From assembly GCA_031279615.1 (NCBI GenBank), contig JAITIE010000089.1, forward strand, positions 1 through 11,936: a stretch of 11,936 nt of DNA, given 5' to 3'. The notes below the pieces were generated by a model. It was not told the origin of the DNA and did not search any database. It saw only the letters and a list, made by a program, of their open reading frames with translations. Each line of letters opens with the position of its first letter. Within the stretch, counting starts at the first letter, position 1. Position numbers and translations under genes: made by a program. This DNA comes from Candidatus Margulisiibacteriota bacterium. GTDB taxonomy: Bacteria > Margulisbacteria > Termititenacia > Termititenacales > Termititenacaceae. Of this stretch, positions 319-10,100 are shown piece by piece.

Positions 319-2115
319 ATGCAGATAGACTTGATCCGCAATTTTTCAATTATCGCGCACATCGACCACGGCAAGTCCACGCTGGCTGACCGCCTGCTGG
401 AGCTGACCGGCGCGGTGTCGGCGCGGGAAATGCGCGCCCAGCTGCTGGACTCGATGGACATTGAACGCGAGCGCGGCATTACGATCAAGCTCAATAACGC
501 GCGCTTGAGCTACGCGGCGCAGGATGGCAAAACTTATGAACTGAATCTGATCGACACGCCCGGCCATGTGGATTTTAGTTACGAGGTGTCACGCTCGCTG
601 GCGGCCTGCGAAGGCGCGCTGCTGGTCGTGGACGCTTCGCAGGGTATCGAGGCGCAGACGCTGGCCAATGTTGGTCTGGCGCGCGAGCTGGGCTTGAAAA
701 TAATTCCGGTGATTAACAAGATCGATTTGCCCGCCGCTGATGTGAATATGGCGCAGGAAGAATTGCTGGACGTGCTGGGTATTGATCCCGATGAATGTAT
801 TTTAGCCTCGGCCAAAGAAGGCCTCGGGATACAGGAGATTTTGGAAGCGATAGTGCGGCGCGTTCCCTGTCCGCAAAATAATAATCAGCCTTTGCAGGCG
901 CTGATTTTTGATTCTTATTTTGACGAGTACCGCGGCGTGGTGGCGCAGATCCGCGTCAAAGAAGGCGTGATCCGCAAAGGCATGATTATGCGCACGATGC
1001 AGACTGGCAAAGAGCACGAGATACTGGAGCTGGGCGTCAAAACCCCGGCGCCCAAACCTGTGGACGCGCTGTCGACCGGTGAGGTGGGCTATGTCATCGC
1101 CAATATCAAGGCTATCGAGGACGCGACGGTTGGCGATACGATCACTGATGCCGCCGCTCCGGCCGCCACGCCGCTGCCCGGTTATCAGCCGGCCAAGTCC
1201 ATGGTTTTCTGCGGACTTTTTCCGGTGGACGGCGAGCAGTTTGAGGATTTGCGCGAGGCTCTGGCCAAAATGAAACTCAACGACGCGGCTCTCCAGTACG
1301 AGCCGGAGACTTCGACCGCGTTGGGTTTTGGTTTTCGCTGCGGTTTTTTGGGGCTGCTGCATATGGAAATAGTGCAGGAGAGACTGGAGCGCGAGTACAA
1401 TCTCAATCTGCTGGCGACCACGCCCTCGGTGGAAGTGGAAGTGGTGAAGACCAATCAAGAGACCGTGCTGATCGATTCACCAGCCAAGCTGCCGCCGGTG
1501 TCCAGCATCGAGGCGATCCGCGAGCCGCTGGTCAAAGCGGTGATTATCACGCCCAATACCTACACCGGCGCGATCATGGAGCTGTGCCAGAAACGCCGCG
1601 GGGTTTTTCGCGATATGGAATATCTGGACAAGACGCGCGTGCGCCTGAATTACGAACTGCCGCTGATCGAGATCGTCACGGATTTTTTCAATAAATTAAA
1701 ATCCGTCTCGCAGGGTTACGCTTCTTTTGATTATGAATTTATAGGTTTCCGCGCGGCGGACATGATCAAGCTGGACATCCTGCTCCACGGCGAGCCGGTG
1801 GACGCGCTGGCGGTCATCATTCACCGCTCCACGGCGGAGTCCCGCGGACGCAAGCTTTGCGAGAAACTCAAAGAATTGATACCGCGGCACATGTTCGAGA
1901 TACCGGTGCAGGCGGCGATCGGCGGCAAGGTCATCGCCCGCGAGACCATCCGCGCCAACCGCAAGGACGTCACGGCCAAATGCTACGGCGGCGACGTGAC
2001 GCGCAAGCGCAAGCTCCTCGAAAAACAAAAAGAGGGCAAAAAACGCCTGAAATCCGTCGGCTCCGTGGACATCCCGCAAGAAGCGTTTTTGGCAATGCTG
2101 AGGATTGAGGACTAG
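319..2115 (+). CDS. lepA: Elongation factor 4 (LepA), ribosome-associated GTPase
   Basis: This encodes 598 residues, the usual length for LepA/EF4, a translational GTPase that acts on the ribosome and is linked to initiation, back-translocation and ribosome assembly. GTP-binding motifs are intact: G1 AHIDHGKST (13-21), G2 RGITIK (52-57), G3 DTPGHVD (79-85), G4 NKID (133-136) and G5 SAK (164-166). EF-G-like domains follow. The LepA-specific C-terminal domain is recognisable from [20 protein letters not shown] and the end [10 protein letters not shown]. The ATG at 319 is fixed by an in-frame TAA at 304-306 and by the conserved N-terminus; no Shine-Dalgarno sequence is seen. The last 16 codons are duplicated twice downstream (4000-4047 and 4760-4807). 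The tail of the working gene differs from those copies almost only at synonymous positions, so it may have been supplied by the inserted cassette. Confidence 0.98.
2068..2115 (+). repeat. lepA-tail repeat, copy A (functional lepA end)
   Basis: These last 16 codons of lepA (encoding [15 protein letters not shown] and stop) are the first of three copies. Aligned without gaps to copy B (4000-4047) it matches at 39 of 48 bases. The differences are synonymous except AGG/AAA (R/K) and the stop TAG/TGA. The longest block identical in all three copies is GAAGCGTTTTTGGC at 2080-2093. After the stop, copies A and B also share a T6 run, five bases, then ATATA. Confidence 0.9.
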
Positions 2116-2174
2116 GTTTTTTGGTTTATATAGATTGCTGATGAGAATAGCAAGGTTTTTATTGTAAAATCAGG

Positions 2175-2180
2175 TATAAT
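2175..2180 (+). promoter_or_regulatory. -10 box (TATAAT) of the restriction-modification operon, leaderless
   Basis: A perfect TATAAT is followed by GTGGTT and then the ATG at 2187, so transcription should begin at or next to the A of that ATG. No clear -35 element is seen 17 bases upstream (AAGGTT). This arrangement decides the start codon: the in-frame GTG at 2181 would lie upstream of the predicted transcript. The toxin-antitoxin promoter at 4078-4083 has the same spacing. Confidence 0.65.
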
Positions 2181-2186
2181 GTGGTT

Positions 2187-3068
2187 ATGAGCTTTCTGGA
2201 ACTATGCGCAAAAATAAAAAGTGAAGCAGCCCGAAGATCATTTGAAGTATCTACGCAGGTTTTAGAGCAAAAAATATATTCCCTTAACAGGAGAGAGTTG
2301 CTTTCTATTGTTGCGGCAATCGGAGCCATTCCCGAAAACATAGGGCATGATTCTACGGAGGAAAAATTATATGCCAAAGCATCAGATATTGTTTTGGCGA
2401 AATGTTTGCGAGAATTAGGGCTTAGCGCTGTTATCAATAAAAAGCGGGCGAATTGCGCTGATGTCGTGGCAAAAAGCATGTTTCATGGTTATTCATTAGT
2501 GGGCGAAGCGAAATCTTTCAGGTTGAGCCGCACGGCTAAAAATCAGAAAGATTTTAAAGTTAAGTCTTTGGCAGATTGGCGCGGGGATAATAATTATGCT
2601 GTTTTGACGTGTCCGTATTATCAATATCCCAAATCCAAAAGCCAGATTTATGGTCAGGCTTTGAATGATAATGTTTCTTTGTTTTCGTGGGAATATTTTT
2701 CTGTTTTGCTGGCAAATAAAATTTCAGAAAACAAGCTGGTGAATTTTGCTGACTTATGGAATTGCAGTTTTCTGTTGGCGAAAAATACCAGAGTAACTGA
2801 TAAGGATAATTGTTTTTTATTAAAGCAAGATGCTTTTATGAAAAAATGTCTAAAATTAAGCGATAAAAAATTTGAGGCTTATTTTAGTGAATTTAGAGAC
2901 AATATTGTGGTCAGAGGAAATTTAGAAATAAAATATTGGCAGGCTAAAATAATGGAAATAAAAAAATATACGAGAAAACAAGCCATTAAAGAATTATTAC
3001 TGTCTTTAAAATTGAATGAAAAAATATCTGCGATTAGGAAATATATTGATTCGTTGGAGCATAAATAA
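2187..3068 (+). CDS. HindIII-like type II restriction endonuclease
   Basis: This encodes 293 residues, close to the 300 of HindIII. Resemblance to remembered HindIII runs along the whole chain and is strongest at SFRLSRTAKNQKDFKVK (110-126), DYAVLT/NYAVLT and the LLFSWEH/LFSWEY region. The homology predicts cutting of AAGCTT as a Mg2+-dependent PD-(D/E)XK enzyme. The catalytic pair appears as E107-A-K109, where HindIII has D108-A-K110, a conservative change allowed by the motif; D92 is also conserved. The ATG at 2187 is chosen because TATAAT ends six bases before it; a GTG at 2181 is the alternative. The TAA overlaps the ATG of the methyltransferase by one base (TAATG). No controller (C) protein gene is present. 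Function is inferred from similarity and from the neighbour, which is HindIII-methylase-like. Confidence 0.9.
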   Translation: MSFLELCAKIKSEAARRSFEVSTQVLEQKIYSLNRRELLSIVAAIGAIPENIGHDSTEEKLYAKASDIVLAKCLRELGLSAVINKKRANCADVVAKSMFHGYSLVGEAKSFRLSRTAKNQKDFKVKSLADWRGDNNYAVLTCPYYQYPKSKSQIYGQALNDNVSLFSWEYFSVLLANKISENKLVNFADLWNCSFLLAKNTRVTDKDNCFLLKQDAFMKKCLKLSDKKFEAYFSEFRDNIVVRGNLEIKYWQAKIMEIKKYTRKQAIKELLLSLKLNEKISAIRKYIDSLEHK

Positions 3069-3991
3069 TGTCTTTGATTAGGCCGAACAATATTTATCAT
3101 GGTGATTCAAAAGAATTAATCGGAGGAGTGGAAGACAACTCCGTTGATTTGATCCTGAGTGATATTCCCTATGGCATAGGCATAGATGAATGGGATGTTT
3201 TGCACGCCAATACTAATAATGCTTATCTTGGTTCTAGCCCGGCGCAGGAAAAGGCCGGCGCGGTATTTAAAAAACGCGGCAAACCCTTGAATGGTTGGTC
3301 TGAAGCAGACAGGCTGATTTCAAAACAGTATTATGAGTGGATTACAATTTGGGCTGCAGAATGGCTGCGGGTTGTCAAGCCGGGAGCGAATGTTTTTGTT
3401 TTTGCCGGCAGACGTTTGGCGCATCGCTGTATTTGTGCATTTGAAGATGCCGGTTTTACTTATAAAGATATGTTGGCTTGGGATAAGGCCCGCGCCGCGC
3501 ATCGAGCGCAAAGAATTAGTGTGGTTTTTGAGCGCAGACAGGATTTTGAATCTGCGGATAAATGGATCGGCTGGAAAGTCGGTAATCTGCGCCCGTTATT
3601 TGAGCCGATACTTTGGTTTACCAAGCCTTATAAGATTGGCGGTACTTTGGCGGATAATATTTTACAGTATGGCTTAGGGGCTTTTAATGAAAAGATTTTA
3701 GAAAAGTATGGGCAGGAGCCGGATAACATTATTCGTATTCAAGCTCGGCGTTCAGATGTTGGATTGCACACCACCCAGAAACCCTTAAAGCTCATGGAAT
3801 TACTGATTGAATTGACGACGACGGAAAATCAATTGGTGCTGGATCCTTTTTGTGGCAGCGGCACAACTTTGGTGGCGGCTTTTAGATTAAAAAGAAATTA
3901 TATTGGATTTGAAAGGGAGAAAGAATATTGCGACATTGTTGCTGACAGATTACAAAAAGAAGAACATGTTTTAGACGGTATGTTGTTTTGA
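3068..3991 (+). CDS. M.HindIII-like DNA adenine methyltransferase (beta class)
   Basis: This encodes 307 residues, similar in length to M.HindIII. The catalytic motif IV SDIPYG (31-36) comes before the S-adenosylmethionine motif I VLDPFCGSGTT (257-267). This order defines beta-class amino-methyltransferases. HTTQKP (234-239) is the usual motif upstream of motif I in such enzymes. IDEWDVLH, SSPAQEK and RGKPLNGWSEAD in the N-terminal half match my memory of M.HindIII, which makes N6-methyladenine in AAGCTT. The enzyme should protect the host from the endonuclease just upstream. GGAG at 3056-3059 is a well-placed Shine-Dalgarno sequence, and the one-base TAATG overlap suggests coupled translation. 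A TATATT at 3042-3047 could serve as an internal -10 box but lacks a clear -35. Confidence 0.93.
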   Translation: MSLIRPNNIYHGDSKELIGGVEDNSVDLILSDIPYGIGIDEWDVLHANTNNAYLGSSPAQEKAGAVFKKRGKPLNGWSEADRLISKQYYEWITIWAAEWLRVVKPGANVFVFAGRRLAHRCICAFEDAGFTYKDMLAWDKARAAHRAQRISVVFERRQDFESADKWIGWKVGNLRPLFEPILWFTKPYKIGGTLADNILQYGLGAFNEKILEKYGQEPDNIIRIQARRSDVGLHTTQKPLKLMELLIELTTTENQLVLDPFCGSGTTLVAAFRLKRNYIGFEREKEYCDIVADRLQKEEHVLDGMLF

Positions 3992-3999
3992 GTCCATAA

Positions 4000-4047
4000 G
4001 ACATCCCGCAGGAAGCGTTTTTGGCGATGCTAAAAATCGAGGATTGA
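4000..4047 (+). repeat. lepA-tail repeat, copy B (orphan gene tail)
   Basis: This lies 8 bases after the methyltransferase stop. Read in the lepA frame it encodes [15 protein letters not shown] and a TGA, the complete LepA C-terminal end with R595 changed to K. There is no gene body in front of it. Bases 4004-4047 are identical over 44 bases to 4764-4807 (copy C). Weak similarity to lepA continues upstream to about 3993 (TCC). It is the junction between cassettes 1 and 2. Confidence 0.93.
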
Positions 4048-4074
4048 TTTTTTAACGCATATAAAATATTTCAA

Positions 4075-4083
4075 TGGTATAAT
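4075..4083 (+). promoter_or_regulatory. Extended -10 promoter of the toxin-antitoxin operon, leaderless
   Basis: TGGTATAAT is an extended -10 element (TG-N-TATAAT) that ends six bases before the ATG at 4090, so the mRNA is predicted to start at or beside the initiator codon. No strong -35 or Shine-Dalgarno sequence is seen. The geometry is the same as at the restriction-modification promoter (TATAAT, six bases, ATG). Confidence 0.65.
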
Positions 4084-4089
4084 AAATGT

Positions 4090-4389
4090 ATGAATGACTT
4101 TTTGTATAGCGTGAGCGACATCAAATCCCGTATCGCTAGTGTGGCCGATAAATACGGCATTGGACGGGCTTTTTTGTTCGGTTCTTACGCCCGAGGCGAA
4201 GCCACGCCGCAGAGCGATATTGATATTTGTATTGAAAAAGGCCAGCTCCGTACTTTGCTGGAATTGTCGGGATTTTATCAGGATTTGGAAAAAACTTTGC
4301 AGCGCAAGGTCGATGTTGTGACTATGGACGGGCTGGACAATAATTTTAAAGATGAAATAAAAAAAGAATTTGTGCTTATTTATGAGTAA
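4090..4389 (+). CDS. mntA: MntA-like minimal nucleotidyltransferase (antitoxin)
   Basis: This encodes 99 residues, the usual size of stand-alone minimal nucleotidyltransferases. The GSX10DXD signature is complete: G31-S32, YARGEATPQS, D43-I-D45. A third acidic residue sits in KVDVV (D75). In MntA/HepT systems the protein transfers AMP groups from ATP to a tyrosine of the HEPN toxin and so switches it off in the cytoplasm. The pairing here with a HEPN gene overlapping by eight bases supports that role. The ATG follows a TATAAT by six bases, and no Shine-Dalgarno sequence is seen. The pair lies between two copies of the lepA tail. Substrate and activity are inferred from the family. Confidence 0.9.
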   Translation: MNDFLYSVSDIKSRIASVADKYGIGRAFLFGSYARGEATPQSDIDICIEKGQLRTLLELSGFYQDLEKTLQRKVDVVTMDGLDNNFKDEIKKEFVLIYE

Positions 4390-4732
4390 TTCAAAAGACA
4401 CTAGTTTGCTCAAACATATTATCAAACATTGCGAGGCGATCGTTGCCGCGCAGAAAAGATTTGGTGATAACTTTGAAGTTTTCAAGTCAGATGCGGATTA
4501 TTTTAATTCGGTTTGTATGAGTTTGCTGCAAATTGGCGAGCTGGCCAATCATTTGTCGGCGGAGTTTAAGACCAAACACAAAATGCTGCCCTGGCCGGAA
4601 ATTATCGGGTTACGTAATGTTGTCGTCCATGGGTATGGACAGTTGGACGCCGCTATTGTCTGGGCGACGCTTAATGAGGACGTGCCCAAGTTGCGTCAGT
4701 ATTGCGCTAAATTGATGTCTTTGAATAAATAA
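4382..4732 (+). CDS. hepT: HepT-like HEPN ribonuclease toxin (DUF86 family)
   Basis: This encodes 116 residues in an all-helical HEPN/DUF86 pattern. The catalytic RX4HXY motif is intact: R78-NVVV-H83-G-Y85. Upstream, QIGELA (50-55) and PW (70-71) are typical of the family. Toxins of this family cleave RNA as dimers. In studied pairs, the tyrosine of the motif is AMPylated by the cognate nucleotidyltransferase. The ATG at 4382 lies inside the end of mntA (ATGAGTAA overlap, eight bases), so toxin synthesis is probably coupled to antitoxin translation. An in-frame TTG at 4370 would add four residues but has no better signal. The gene ends 31 bases before lepA-tail copy C. Confidence 0.9.
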   Translation: MSNSKDTSLLKHIIKHCEAIVAAQKRFGDNFEVFKSDADYFNSVCMSLLQIGELANHLSAEFKTKHKMLPWPEIIGLRNVVVHGYGQLDAAIVWATLNEDVPKLRQYCAKLMSLNK

Positions 4733-4746
4733 ACAAAACCATGGAT

Positions 4747-4807
4747 GCCGGTTCCTGTGGCCCTCCCGCAGGAAGCGTTTTTGGCGATGCTAAAAATCGA
4801 GGATTGA
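4747..4807 (+). repeat. lepA-tail repeat, copy C (outermost orphan tail)
   Basis: Bases 4764-4807 are identical to copy B over 44 bases and encode [14 protein letters not shown] and TGA. Further upstream, 4747-4763 still resembles lepA 2055-2071 but with base changes and one extra T near 4756, which breaks the reading frame. The homology is thus longer and more decayed than in copy B. It marks the right edge of the accessory segment; the slipin promoter begins immediately after. Confidence 0.9.
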
Positions 4808-4869: not shown

Positions 4870-5649
4870 ATGCAATTTATCATTTTTGGTTTGTTTGTGA
4901 TCGTGGCGCTGGTGTTGGTTTCGATTAAGCAGATTAATCAGTACGAACGCGGCCTGCTTTTTTCTTTTGGCCGGTTTACAAGAATTCTGGAGCCGGGCTG
5001 GCGGCTGGCGCTGCCGGTGGTCCAGTCTTTTGACAAAGTGGATATCCGCACCAAAGCGGTCGACGTGCCGGAGCAGGACGCGATCACGCGCGACAATGTC
5101 TCGATCAAAATTAACGCCGTGATTTATTACAAAGTTTTTGACGCGGGCAAGGCGATTATCGAAGTCGAGAATTTTTATTACGCCGTGAGCCAGCTGGCGC
5201 AGACCACGATGCGCAACGCCGTCGGCTCGGTGACGCTCGACGAGTTGCTGACCGACCGCGAAAAAGTTTCCCGGGAAATTTGTTCGATTATCGACAAATT
5301 GACCGACCCGTGGGGCATCAAAGTTGAAAATGTGGAATTAAAAGACGTCACGTTGTCCGAGGAGATGAAGCGCGTCATCGCCAAAGTCGCGGAAGCCGAG
5401 CGGGAAAAACGCGCGGTCATCACCAAAGCCGCCGGTGAAGTCGAGGCTTCGGAAAATCTGGCCAAAGCCGCTTCACTCATGGGCAGCACGCCCGGCGCGC
5501 TGCATTTGCGCACACTGTCCACGCTCAATGACCTGAGCTCTGACCAGTCCAACACGGTGATTTTTGCCGTGCCGGTCGAAGCTTTGCGCGCGCTGGAAGG
5601 CTTGGCCAAACTGACGGAGACTTTGACACAGCCCAAGTCCGGCAAGTAA
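4870..5649 (+). CDS. Slipin / stomatin-like SPFH (band 7) membrane protein
   Basis: This encodes 259 residues. A single hydrophobic segment (about 3-19) anchors the N-terminus in the membrane. An SPFH/band 7 domain follows (about 20-190), with the slipin hallmarks YERGLLFSFGRF, EPGWRLALP and VDIRTKAVDVP. A charged helical stretch, AEAEREKRAVITKAAGE, and a short tail complete it. Slipins assemble into large ring or cage oligomers in membrane microdomains; client proteins vary and are unknown here. The partner gene nfeD, often next to slipins, is absent on both sides. HflC/HflK is less likely because the gene stands alone and the domain order is slipin-like. The ATG at 4870 is supported by AAGGAG six bases upstream and by the membrane anchor beginning there. 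It ends just before a hairpin shared with a convergent small gene. Confidence 0.9.
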   Translation: MQFIIFGLFVIVALVLVSIKQINQYERGLLFSFGRFTRILEPGWRLALPVVQSFDKVDIRTKAVDVPEQDAITRDNVSIKINAVIYYKVFDAGKAIIEVENFYYAVSQLAQTTMRNAVGSVTLDELLTDREKVSREICSIIDKLTDPWGIKVENVELKDVTLSEEMKRVIAKVAEAEREKRAVITKAAGEVEASENLAKAASLMGSTPGALHLRTLSTLNDLSSDQSNTVIFAVPVEALRALEGLAKLTETLTQPKSGK

Positions 5650-5653
5650 ATTA

Positions 5654-5701
5654 GAGAGTGTAAATTAAACTGTGTAAACAGCGCACTCCATTTACACTCT
5701 C
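5654..5701. terminator. Hairpin between convergent genes, likely bidirectional terminator
   Basis: GAGAGTGTAAAT (5654-5665) and ATTTACACTCTC (5690-5701) are perfect 12-base inverted repeats around a 24-base loop that can itself fold (CTGT-GTAA-ACAG, 5670-5681). The hairpin begins 5 bases after the slipin stop and lies 5 bases beyond the stop of the minus-strand small gene. On the plus strand a T6 run follows only after 11 bases, so it is not a textbook terminator. The heptamer TAAATTA occurs three times (5647, 5661, 5703), which leaves open a protein-binding role. Confidence 0.5.
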
Positions 5702-5706
5702 GTAAA

Positions 5707-7137: not shown

Positions 7138-10100
7138 AAGGACCCGATGAAACGCGGCAAGTCCGCTTTTCAGCCCGGGCGCGCCTACCCGCAGGTGGAC
7201 GTTTCCGGCTACGAAGAGCTGGAGTTCAATACCTTGGAGCAGTCCGGCGATCCGCAAAAATATCAAAACACGACCGAGTATTTAGGTCTGCCAGCTTCGG
7301 TCAAAGTATACGACGGCCTGCGCCACCGCCGCTTGATCGACCTTGAGGGCCAGATCAACGAGAAACTTTACGTGCGCTACAAAATCACCCAGGACCCCGA
7401 CCTGCCGCAGGAGACGGATATTTACGTGGAGTACGATAAATTTTCGGTGTATTTTGGCAAATACGATGCCGCTCTAGTCAACGGCGATATGTTTGCGCTG
7501 GGCAAAGGTATTGACGGTTTGCACGCCGATTATCTCGACAGGGATTTTGAATTGGAAGCGATTTACGGCGAAGAGCGTTCGCACGAGCGTGAGTTTTCTT
7601 TCCAGGGCGCGGGCAAACGCGAGTACAGCCTCGGCCAGACCAATATCGTGGAGGGCACGCTGAAGATCCGCTTGAACGGCAATGAGCTTTCGGAAAACGA
7701 TTACCGGGTGGATTATTTTGACGGCGTGATTGTTTTTGACAAAATTCTTTCGGTTTTGGACACGATCGAGGGTTCGTATGAATATCTGGATCCGATCGAG
7801 GATTTTTTGCCGATTTCTTCCAAGATCCGTTTGAGCGGCGTGCAGCACCGTTACAAAGCTTACCGCGGCTCCGAGCCGATCATCATCACGGCGGACGCGG
7901 TGTATCAATACGAGCCGGCGCTCAATGAGCCGGTGGCCGCGCCGCCGGAAGCCCTGCGCGCGGCGACAAGTTTTTCCTATCAAGACGGCGAGCTGCAGGT
8001 CGTGGTGCGGCGCGGCGCGGAACAGGCGGTTTATCTGCGCCATTTTGAGGAAAAAATTCCTTTGCAGCCGGCGGAGGACAGCGGCGCCTGGACTTTGACT
8101 TTGCCGTTTACGCCAGGCGAGCAAGAGACGGCGCTGGATTATGAATTTGCCGATTATACCCTGCGGCAGGAGTACTGGCTCTATTTGGAGAAGCCGGACC
8201 TTTGCATTTCCCGCGTGTCCGCTGGCTATCAGGTCCTTTTGCCGGAAGGCGCGGTGCGTTTTACGCGCGATAAATTTGCGCAGAACGAAACTTTGCATTT
8301 TACTTTTCAGACCTATGACGGCCTGCATGAAAAGATTCTGGTCAATTTTCAAAGCGACGCGCAGGAGTTGCTTTTGTCCGACGGACAGTTTATTTTAAAC
8401 CGCCGCTTGGTCGAAGAAACAGCCGGCGCGAAAAATTTTTATCTGATCTTTAATCACGGCGCCGCTAATGAGACGGCGCGCAAAGTGCCTTTTGCGGTGG
8501 ACTATGCGCCGGTCGAGGCTGGAGTTCTGGAAAAAATCCAGCTGGCGGATTTTCCGGTGGTTTCATTTACGGAAAAAGTTTATTTTGAGGGCGAACGGCT
8601 GATCGCCAATCAGGATTATAAATTAAATTACGCGACCGGCCTGCTGACTTTTTTGCGGCCGCTGCCGGCGGACACTTACGCTTTGAAAGTCGACTATGTT
8701 TACAATCAGACGCGCGCCGCGCAGGAAATCATCAAGGGACGTGACTCGCAGGGGCCTTATGCTCTGGCGCACGGTTTGCTGGCGCCGGGCAGCACGGCAG
8801 TCATGGTCAATAATCTCAATATGATCGAGGGCGTGGACTACACGCTGGATCCGCGCACCGGCGCGCTTAGTTTTCCGCGGCGGATCAATTCGGTCGACGC
8901 CATTCAGGTTAATTACCGTTATTTTGATTCACTGCTGCCGGCGGAGCAGCATAAAAAAGAACAATTTACGATCAGCAGTTATTATGTGCAGGAGCAGGCC
9001 AAATCGGCGGAAGGCGAGGGACTGGAATCGCACACGCTTTCCGGCGGCGACATCAGCGTAACCAGCGACGCGGGACTAACGCTAATCACTATCTCGACTA
9101 AATATTTGCCGATCGCCAAATTCGGCGAAGTGCAGGTCGACGGCGTCAAAGTCGACATACTCGCCAAATCGGAATATAACGGACAGCTGGTTATTTCTGG
9201 CAATTACACACAGGCGGACGCCAGCCGCATCAAGGTTTCTTTTGATCAGGGACAGGCTTCGCAGGCGCCGCAGATTTATTTCCGCAACAGCACTATGGCC
9301 AGGGAAATAGTTCTCGACGAGATAACCTCTTTTGCCCGGCCAATTGTTTACGGCTCGGTTGTTTTAGAAGTGCGGCGCAAAAATGATCCTTTTTATATTC
9401 CGCTGGTGCAGAACCGCGATTATATTATGGGACGGGAAAGCGATTTAATGTCGGGGCATGGCAGCAACGGCGACGCGGTCGTCACGGATAATCCTGAAGT
9501 TTGGCAGCGCGGCATTATTACGTTTATTACAGGCAATGCCTATACTCCTTATTATGCCTACAATGGTTTTGGTCCGGAGGATGATTTCCGTCTGACCTAC
9601 AAAATCTCCAACGCCGAAAGCACTGACCCGGGCGATGTCCTGCATCAGACTTACGGCACGAAATTTACTTATTCGCCGGTAGACTGGCTGCGCGCCGATG
9701 TGGAGTACAACGAAAGTCACAAGCAGTATCAACGCGCCACGGCCCAGGAATCCGTCACGGATAACGGCTCCGGTTACGCCGGACAGGAAATAAATATTTT
9801 AAATTTGCTGAAAAGCAAAAGTCCAGTCTATAACAGCATGAGCAATCTGGAGATCGTCGAGGACAGCGAAAAAGTTTATATCAATGACCGCCTGCAGACC
9901 AAAAACGACAGCTACACGCTGGCCTACAACGGCGGAGTTTTGCGTTTTCATTCCGGCCTGGCCTTGTCGCCAGCCGATATAGTGCGGATCGAGTTTAGCT
10001 ATTACAGCAGCGGCGTCGGCGAGCAGGAACAGTTTGATGAGAAAGCCAAAGCCGCCAAAGTCGATCTGCGCTTAAATTTGGGACAGACGGATATTTCCGC

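What the first reader, a model, noticed from the sequence alone, without database searches (positions are those of the whole stretch)
2068..4807. Two self-contained modules stacked behind lepA, each closed by an extra copy of the lepA 3' end
The last 16 codons of lepA appear at 2068-2115, 4000-4047 and 4760-4807. Between the first two lies a restriction-modification operon; between the last two lies a toxin-antitoxin operon. All run in the same direction. The order gene, cassette, tail, cassette, tail is what serial insertion at the 3' end of a gene produces when every insert carries its own replacement tail. A conserved protein gene, not a tRNA gene, would be the docking site. The arrangement may represent an undescribed family of small cassettes targeting lepA.
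Basis: partly seen in the sequence, partly recalled or inferred. Interest (0 to 1): 0.88.

Follow-up and report, generated by a model that had tools for sequence, protein, structure and literature searches.

The report
Defence cassettes docked at gene ends
Small self-protection gene packages appear to have slotted in one after another just behind a conserved gene, each time giving that gene a new end and pushing the old end downstream, and related bacteria show the same layout behind several other genes.

Summary
In detail: the lepA 3' end recurs at 4000-4047 and about 4760-4807, closing a HindIII-type restriction-modification operon and an MntA-HepT toxin-antitoxin operon. In six congeneric genomes the lepA-slipin gap is empty in two, holds the toxin-antitoxin cassette in one, the restriction cassette plus another defence-like module in one, both cassettes here, and a toxin-antitoxin remnant in one. 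So insertion of cassettes behind lepA is supported. lepA is not a special target: the gene/cassette/tail layout also occurs in the genus behind gyrA (four tails in one genome), purF, ppdK and others, and behind ilvD and metF in one genome of another family. No tyrosine or serine recombinase match lies in a cassette and nine docking tails share no motif. Gene tails and displaced tails differ mostly synonymously. Best reading: recombination at the gene tail, the tail itself being the address; the recombination step is inferred. Several modules at these docks have no tail copy. Nearest described phenomenon: insertion of restriction-modification systems with long target duplication.

The parts
319..2115 (+). 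lepA (elongation factor 4), the docking gene
   Evidence: Pfam GTP_EFTU and LepA_C
2068..2115 (+). current 3' tail of lepA (16 codons incl. stop); differs from copy 2 at 9 of 48 bases, 6 codons synonymous and 1 not
2187..3068 (+). HindIII-type restriction endonuclease gene (cassette 1)
   Evidence: PF09518 5e-54; HindIII structure 2e52, E 1.4e-65; homologue at the lepA dock of G004, 82% DNA identity
3068..3991 (+). N6/N4 DNA methyltransferase gene (cassette 1)
   Evidence: PF01555; PADLOC MTase_II; 81% DNA identity in G004
4000..4047 (+). lepA tail copy 2; the bases after it resemble those directly behind lepA in G001 (start of the MntA-HepT cassette)
4090..4389 (+). MntA-like nucleotidyltransferase antitoxin gene (cassette 2)
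   Evidence: PF01909/PF18765; 90% DNA identity at the lepA dock of G001
4382..4732 (+). HepT-like HEPN toxin gene (cassette 2)
   Evidence: PF01934; 85% DNA identity in G001
4749..4807 (+). lepA tail copy 3, followed by the slipin leader
4870..5649 (+). slipin (Band_7/SPFH), the fixed gene beyond the dock
   Evidence: PF01145; follows lepA directly in G002 and G003

Best explanation
These are small accessory cassettes (restriction-modification, toxin-antitoxin, other defence-like genes) without a recognisable recombinase that enter the chromosome by recombination at the 3' end of a host gene. The unit is a module plus a copy of the target gene's last 30-150 bp. A crossover inside that shared tail joins the resident gene to the incoming tail, so the gene stays whole, and pushes the resident tail, with the DNA that followed it, to the far side of the cassette. 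Repetition gives gene-cassette-tail-cassette-tail. Shown: cargo presence/absence at the dock, displaced tails with flanking DNA that directly follows the gene in other genomes, mainly synonymous tail divergence, several unrelated docks, no PF00589 or PF00239 match in the cassettes, no shared motif in nine tails. Inferred: that the recombination is homology-based (single crossover of a circle, or one-ended homologous joining of linear DNA after uptake) rather than done by a dedicated enzyme, and that established docks then exchange cassettes by ordinary homologous recombination.
For: lepA-slipin gap: empty in G002 and G003, MntA-HepT in G001, GmrSD_N/HEPN plus HindIII RM in G004, RM and MntA-HepT in G000, broken MntA-HepT in G005. 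Displaced lepA tails of G004 and G001 run into the DNA that follows lepA in empty G002. At ppdK the displaced tail and following hairpin of G001:C1 match the gene-proximal ones of G003 and G001:C107 (93 nt, 92-95%), and the displaced one of C107 matches the gene-proximal one of G004 (95 nt, 79%). Survey of ORFs of 250 aa or more: 13 of 838 in genus stretches have a downstream tail copy, 0 upstream, 0 reverse strand; outside the phylum 1 of 1073 (sampling caveats in the full report). 17 tail pairs: 50 synonymous, 23 nonsynonymous codon differences, 54.6 nonsynonymous expected neutrally, 0 of 20,000 simulations as low. No motif beyond random sets in 9 tails. ComEC in 6 of 6 genomes of the genus.
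Against: The recombination step is not observed. Tails of 30-60 bp at 81-98% identity are poor substrates for RecA (recalled). Published one-ended joining usually deletes host DNA (PMC3240628 passages). ComEC also occurs in 10 of 14 control genomes. The least diverged case (98 bp, no mismatch) fits an ordinary target duplication equally well. The 17 pairs are not independent (the gyrA gene tail of G001 is used three times), and constraint on the gene copy alone gives some synonymous excess. Modules without a detected tail copy: between the two modules of G004 at lepA, purF in G005, ppdK in G004, gyrA in G002 and G005. MntA divergence (90%) equals that of lepA (88-90%), so that cassette may be inherited with losses; RM is more diverged (81-82%). 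A recombinase lies about 4 kb beyond the L182 dock and near the L260 dock.
Confidence: 0.5

Rival explanations
1. Insertion with long target duplication: an unknown transposition-like process inserts restriction-modification or toxin-antitoxin modules and duplicates about 30-150 bp of target; insertions whose duplication spans a stop codon leave the gene whole and survive. Later gene conversion introduces the synonymous differences.
For: A review passage describes RM units inserting with long and variable target duplications in the order of 100 bp (PMC3874152). L204 shows an exact 98-bp repeat running 4 bp past the stop codon, and the L182 and ppdK repeats also cross the stop.
Against: Most tail differences are synonymous, which a neutral local duplicate would not show without a second process. 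Gene starts, where a duplication could also leave a gene whole, gave only 2 control hits in 838 genus ORFs, one of them on the ppdK repeat itself.
Confidence: 0.25
2. Cassettes are remnants or satellites of integrative elements that use site-specific recombinases supplied in trans, each with its own gene-tail attachment site.
For: Gene 3' ends and tRNA T-arms are classic attachment sites (recalled); one single-ORF cassette sits next to a tRNA-Thr whose 3' part is copied 504 bp away (L163). All 6 genomes carry PF00589 matches, 24 in all. In L182 two such matches lie about 4 kb beyond the dock, and L260 holds one upstream of its dock.
Against: No PF00589 match or PF00239 match (4 matches in 3 of 6 genomes, none in G000) falls in a cassette described here. 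Of 24 PF00589 matches, 21 lie in surveyed stretches, and only those two stretches also hold a tail copy of an ORF of 250 aa or more. No exact match to a degenerate lepA-tail pattern in viral contigs. Many docks would need many enzymes.
Confidence: 0.2
3. Local tandem duplication of the gene tail or assembly error, with no mobility.
For: The window is one whole contig of a draft genome.
Against: Same anatomy in other genomes with different cargo and with empty sites; displaced tails match gene-proximal arrangements elsewhere.
Confidence: 0.03

Closest known systems
Insertion of restriction-modification systems with long target duplication (Nobusato 2000; Furuta 2010; reviewed in PMC3874152)
   Same: RM modules without a known mobile element, inserted with direct repeats in the order of 100 bp (review passage seen; Furuta 2010 not held; Nobusato 2000 not seen)
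   Different: Here repeats sit at gene 3' ends, can be stacked, close toxin-antitoxin and other modules too, and the copies differ mainly synonymously
SCCmec-type cassettes at the rlmH (orfX) 3' end (recalled)
   Same: Serial insertion at the 3' end of one protein gene with a repeat at each junction
   Different: SCC carries or borrows ccr serine recombinases and has one target; here no PF00239 match in a cassette or anywhere in G000, G004, G005, several targets, tail copies 0.5-4 kb from the gene
Minimal mobile elements of Neisseria (papers holding the term listed; details recalled)
   Same: Alternative RM and other cassettes exchanged between conserved genes without an own recombinase
   Different: Displaced gene tails are not part of that description as recalled
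Integron cassette arrays (recalled)
   Same: Small cassettes in series, each closed by a recombination sequence
   Different: The closing sequence is a target-gene tail, different at each dock; no shared motif
Homology-facilitated illegitimate recombination (PMC3240628, passages seen)
   Same: Homologous joint at one end and illegitimate joint at the other during DNA uptake
   Different: Usual product is insertion plus deletion, not displacement of a gene tail

Membership tests
RM insertion with long target duplication | RM module flanked by long direct repeats of target DNA | tested here: met
   lepA tails flank the HindIII RM in G000
RM insertion with long target duplication | Empty site with a single target copy in relatives | tested here: met
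   G002 and G003 lepA-slipin
RM insertion with long target duplication | Repeats are copies of one resident target | tested here: inconclusive
   98-bp exact repeat in L204 fits; synonymous bias over 17 pairs argues for divergence as coding sequence
Site-specific integrative element | Recombinase gene in the element | tested here: not met
   no PF00589 or PF00239 match in the cassettes described; other recombinase or transposase families not searched
Site-specific integrative element | Common attachment core | tested here: not met
   no motif in 9 docking tails beyond random sets; tests one enzyme for all docks, not one per dock
SCCmec-like cassette | ccr serine recombinase and rlmH site | tested here: not met
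   sites are lepA and other genes; no PF00239 match in G000, G004 or G005
HindIII-type RM system | HindIII-family endonuclease with linked DNA methyltransferase | tested here: met
MntA-HepT toxin-antitoxin | NTase-HEPN gene pair | tested here: met
   overlapping ORFs; activity not testable here

The most novel reading that the evidence does not exclude
A gene-capture system without a dedicated recombinase: defence and toxin-antitoxin cassettes use the conserved 3' end of whichever host gene they sit behind as a portable homology address, so that any conserved gene can become an array of cassettes, working like an integron whose closing sites are gene tails.
Probability: 0.35. Interest if true: 0.87.

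Novelty: new variant of a known kind. Interest (0 to 1): 0.74.

Why it matters
How solitary restriction-modification and toxin-antitoxin modules move without transposases or integrases is a long-standing question. This genus offers several parallel events with empty sites and traceable displaced tails. It suggests a simple rule (insert behind a stop codon, carry the gene's tail) that can be searched for in any genome, and it makes the mechanism testable at the sequence level.

Tried and rejected
Phage origin of the tail: a degenerate lepA-tail pattern found 0 stretches in viral contigs; plasmids were not searched. The genome-contig scan for lepA kept the 80 best loci, all at 66% identity or less; they served as an out-of-phylum control. 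A shared docking motif was looked for and not found. Serine recombinases were searched. Rows dropped from the survey by the flank-similarity filter: 2, 2, 2, 6 and 6 in the five sets. One of them, L199, is probably a further case; the others I take to be paralogues or repeats, not examined one by one. Survey hits probably not cassettes: L203 (internal repeat, judged by eye), L097 (AT-rich, inside the next gene), L175 (weak, 82%). In one search two pairs (gyrA tail 4, metF) were out of register; one search corrects them and replaces that test. L213 was left out of the survey because L263 covers most of it; L250, L256, L288 and the short search loci were not surveyed. Pfam was not obtained for the larger extra genes of L204, L207 and L199 (one search failed on a wrong frame and was not repeated).
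Full report
What is there. The window is one whole contig of a draft genome of an unnamed bacterial species. lepA (319-2115) is followed by a HindIII-type endonuclease and a methyltransferase (2187-3991), a copy of the lepA 3' end (4000-4047), an MntA-like nucleotidyltransferase and HepT-like toxin pair (4090-4732), a second copy of the lepA 3' end (about 4749-4807) and slipin (4870-5649). In the held 1.02 Mb of the own genome the tail occurs three times and nowhere else above chance. The endonuclease aligns with HindIII over 282 residues, E 1.4e-65.

The lepA dock in congeners. Five other species of the genus are held. G002 and G003 have lepA followed directly by slipin. G001 has lepA, MntA-HepT, a tail copy, slipin. 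G004 has lepA, a GmrSD_N protein and a HEPN protein on the opposite strand, the HindIII system, a tail copy, slipin, with no tail between its two modules. G005 has lepA followed by a broken MntA-HepT and then other DNA, with no slipin match on its contig. The displaced tails of G004 and G001 run into the DNA that follows lepA in the empty G002, and G000 copy 2 is followed by the same bases as lepA in G001, the start of the MntA-HepT cassette. After copy 3 of G000 the likeness to the G002 gap is limited to a short stretch before slipin. A 25-aa lepA-tail search over 74 phylum genomes found a match in 64; only G000 (three) and G004 (two) had more than one. The 36-base G001 copy is not caught by that search.

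The same layout elsewhere in the genus. In 20 stretches of G001 tail copies were found behind other genes; the gene names are confirmed by NCBIfam cut-offs unless marked. purF is followed by a nucleotidyltransferase-HEPN pair and a purF tail copy 1,015 bp on. gyrA has three extra tails at +987, +2402 and +3824, enclosing a T5orf172/DUF5655 protein and genes that look by eye like tail fibres (one tested, no Pfam match) and HTH regulators, with a DUF4160/DUF2442 pair beyond the last. A tRNA-Thr has a copy of its 3' part 504 bp away with one ORF between that matches CdiA_C. A wider scan added ppdK with a ParE toxin and a weak Phd match below cut-off, a 371-aa gene of unknown family with DUF4160/DUF2442, an 847-aa gene of G003 (partly cellobiosidase-like, below cut-off) with a Phd/ParE pair and further genes, leuS of G003 (weak copy), a galE of G001 (weak copy), a 381-aa gene of G001 with a DUF3800 protein, and, in G011 of another family, ilvD with an ORF6N protein and metF (methylenetetrahydrofolate reductase). 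An aminotransferase gene of G003 (LegC-like, below cut-off) with a 155-base copy and a large membrane-type protein between was dropped by the filter but looks like a further case.

Counts and controls. Among ORFs of at least 250 aa, 13 of 838 in genus stretches (95 loci, 1.55 Mb) have a same-strand tail copy 250-12,000 bp downstream with unrelated flanks; 0 have one upstream and 0 on the reverse strand. Phylum set (G011, G014, G035, G009, G007; 37 loci): 2 of 371, both in G011; 1 reverse-strand hit. Outside the phylum (80 loci, 1.36 Mb): 1 of 1073 downstream, an AT-rich match inside the next gene; 2 reverse-strand hits. Gene starts gave 2 hits in the genus, both in G001, 0 in the phylum set and 1 outside; one of the G001 hits lies on the ppdK repeat itself. 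The genus figure is not a random sample: L028, L031, the window and L246 were fetched because already suspected, L260 for its recombinase, L203 is probably an internal repeat, and L175 and L207 are weak.

Docks across congeners. gyrA is followed by a T5orf172-like gene and a tail copy in G000, but by fibre- and HTH-like genes without a detected tail copy in G002 and G005. ppdK is followed by closely similar ParE/Phd-type pairs and tail copies in two G001 contigs, a different ParE-type toxin without a detected tail copy in G004, a different ORF cut by the contig end in G003, and fibre/HTH-like frames in G005. purF has the nucleotidyltransferase-HEPN pair and a tail copy in G001; in G005 the HEPN gene is there, the nucleotidyltransferase frame looks broken and no tail copy was detected; G002 and G004 have an HTH-like gene, G003 other host genes. 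At ppdK the displaced tail plus the hairpin after it in G001:C1 matches the gene-proximal ones of G003 and G001:C107 at 92-95% over 93 bases, and the displaced ones of C107 match the gene-proximal ones of G004 at 79% over 95 bases.

How the tails differ. In 17 gene-tail/displaced-tail pairs there are 50 synonymous and 23 nonsynonymous codon differences; 54.6 nonsynonymous are expected if substitutions fall at random, and none of 20,000 simulations is as low. Differences by codon position are 10, 16 and 54. The pairs are not fully independent: the G001 gyrA tail is used three times. The strongest single cases are leuS (6 of 6 synonymous), lepA of G000 (6 of 7) and ilvD (5 of 6). The gyrA pairs are weaker, and a comparison of two displaced gyrA tails looks neutral. 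Constraint on the gene copy alone can explain part of the bias, but hardly the cases with almost no nonsynonymous change. The least diverged case, L204, is an exact 98-base repeat that runs 4 bases past the stop, which fits a local duplication or a donor from the same population.

Mechanism. No PF00589 match (24 in the genus) and no PF00239 match (4 in three of six genomes) falls in a cassette described here; two PF00589 matches lie about 4 kb beyond the L182 dock and one lies upstream of the L260 dock. Other recombinase families were not searched. Nine docking tails share no motif beyond random sets. The most economical account is recombination at the gene tail itself, with the tail as a homology address, followed by ordinary homologous exchange at established docks. 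This is inference. A transposition-like process with long target duplication, described for restriction-modification systems (PMC3874152, passages seen), and recombinases acting in trans remain open. ComEC is present in 6 of 6 genomes, which does not decide the matter.

Literature. Seen as passages: PMC3874152, PMC3031569, PMC3240628. Furuta 2010 is not held and Nobusato 2000 was not seen. Of the searches for lepA as an attachment site and for tail-closed cassettes, searches listed nothing that by title or start of abstract describes this pattern, and searches listed no paper at all; they cover only the open-licence library. SCCmec, integron and minimal-mobile-element details are recalled.

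Noticed in passing
window 5653-5702 and G005 contig C103 (L032, about 8516-8538 of its reverse complement): A short inverted-repeat unit after slipin contains AGAGTGTAAATTAAACTGTGTAA; the same 23 bases mark the point where the G005 HepT gene is cut off, so it looks like the end of a transposable element (family not tested).
   Followed up: partly
G006 and G007 (sister genus): Neither genome of the sister genus has a lepA match, although they are 92% and 100% complete.
   Followed up: no
L171, L245, L246, L247: Fibre-like genes (by eye; one tested, no Pfam match) recur on the opposite strand beside gyrA in four genomes of the genus, in three of them with an HTH-like gene, possibly a cassette class of their own.
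   Followed up: partly
G001 contigs C1 and C107: Two different ppdK 3' regions with closely similar toxin-antitoxin pairs lie in one genome bin, so the bin may mix two close strains.
   Followed up: no
L199 15032-18215: A LegC-like aminotransferase gene has a displaced tail of about 155 bases with a large membrane-type protein gene between, hinting that surface-glycan genes use the same layout.
   Followed up: partly
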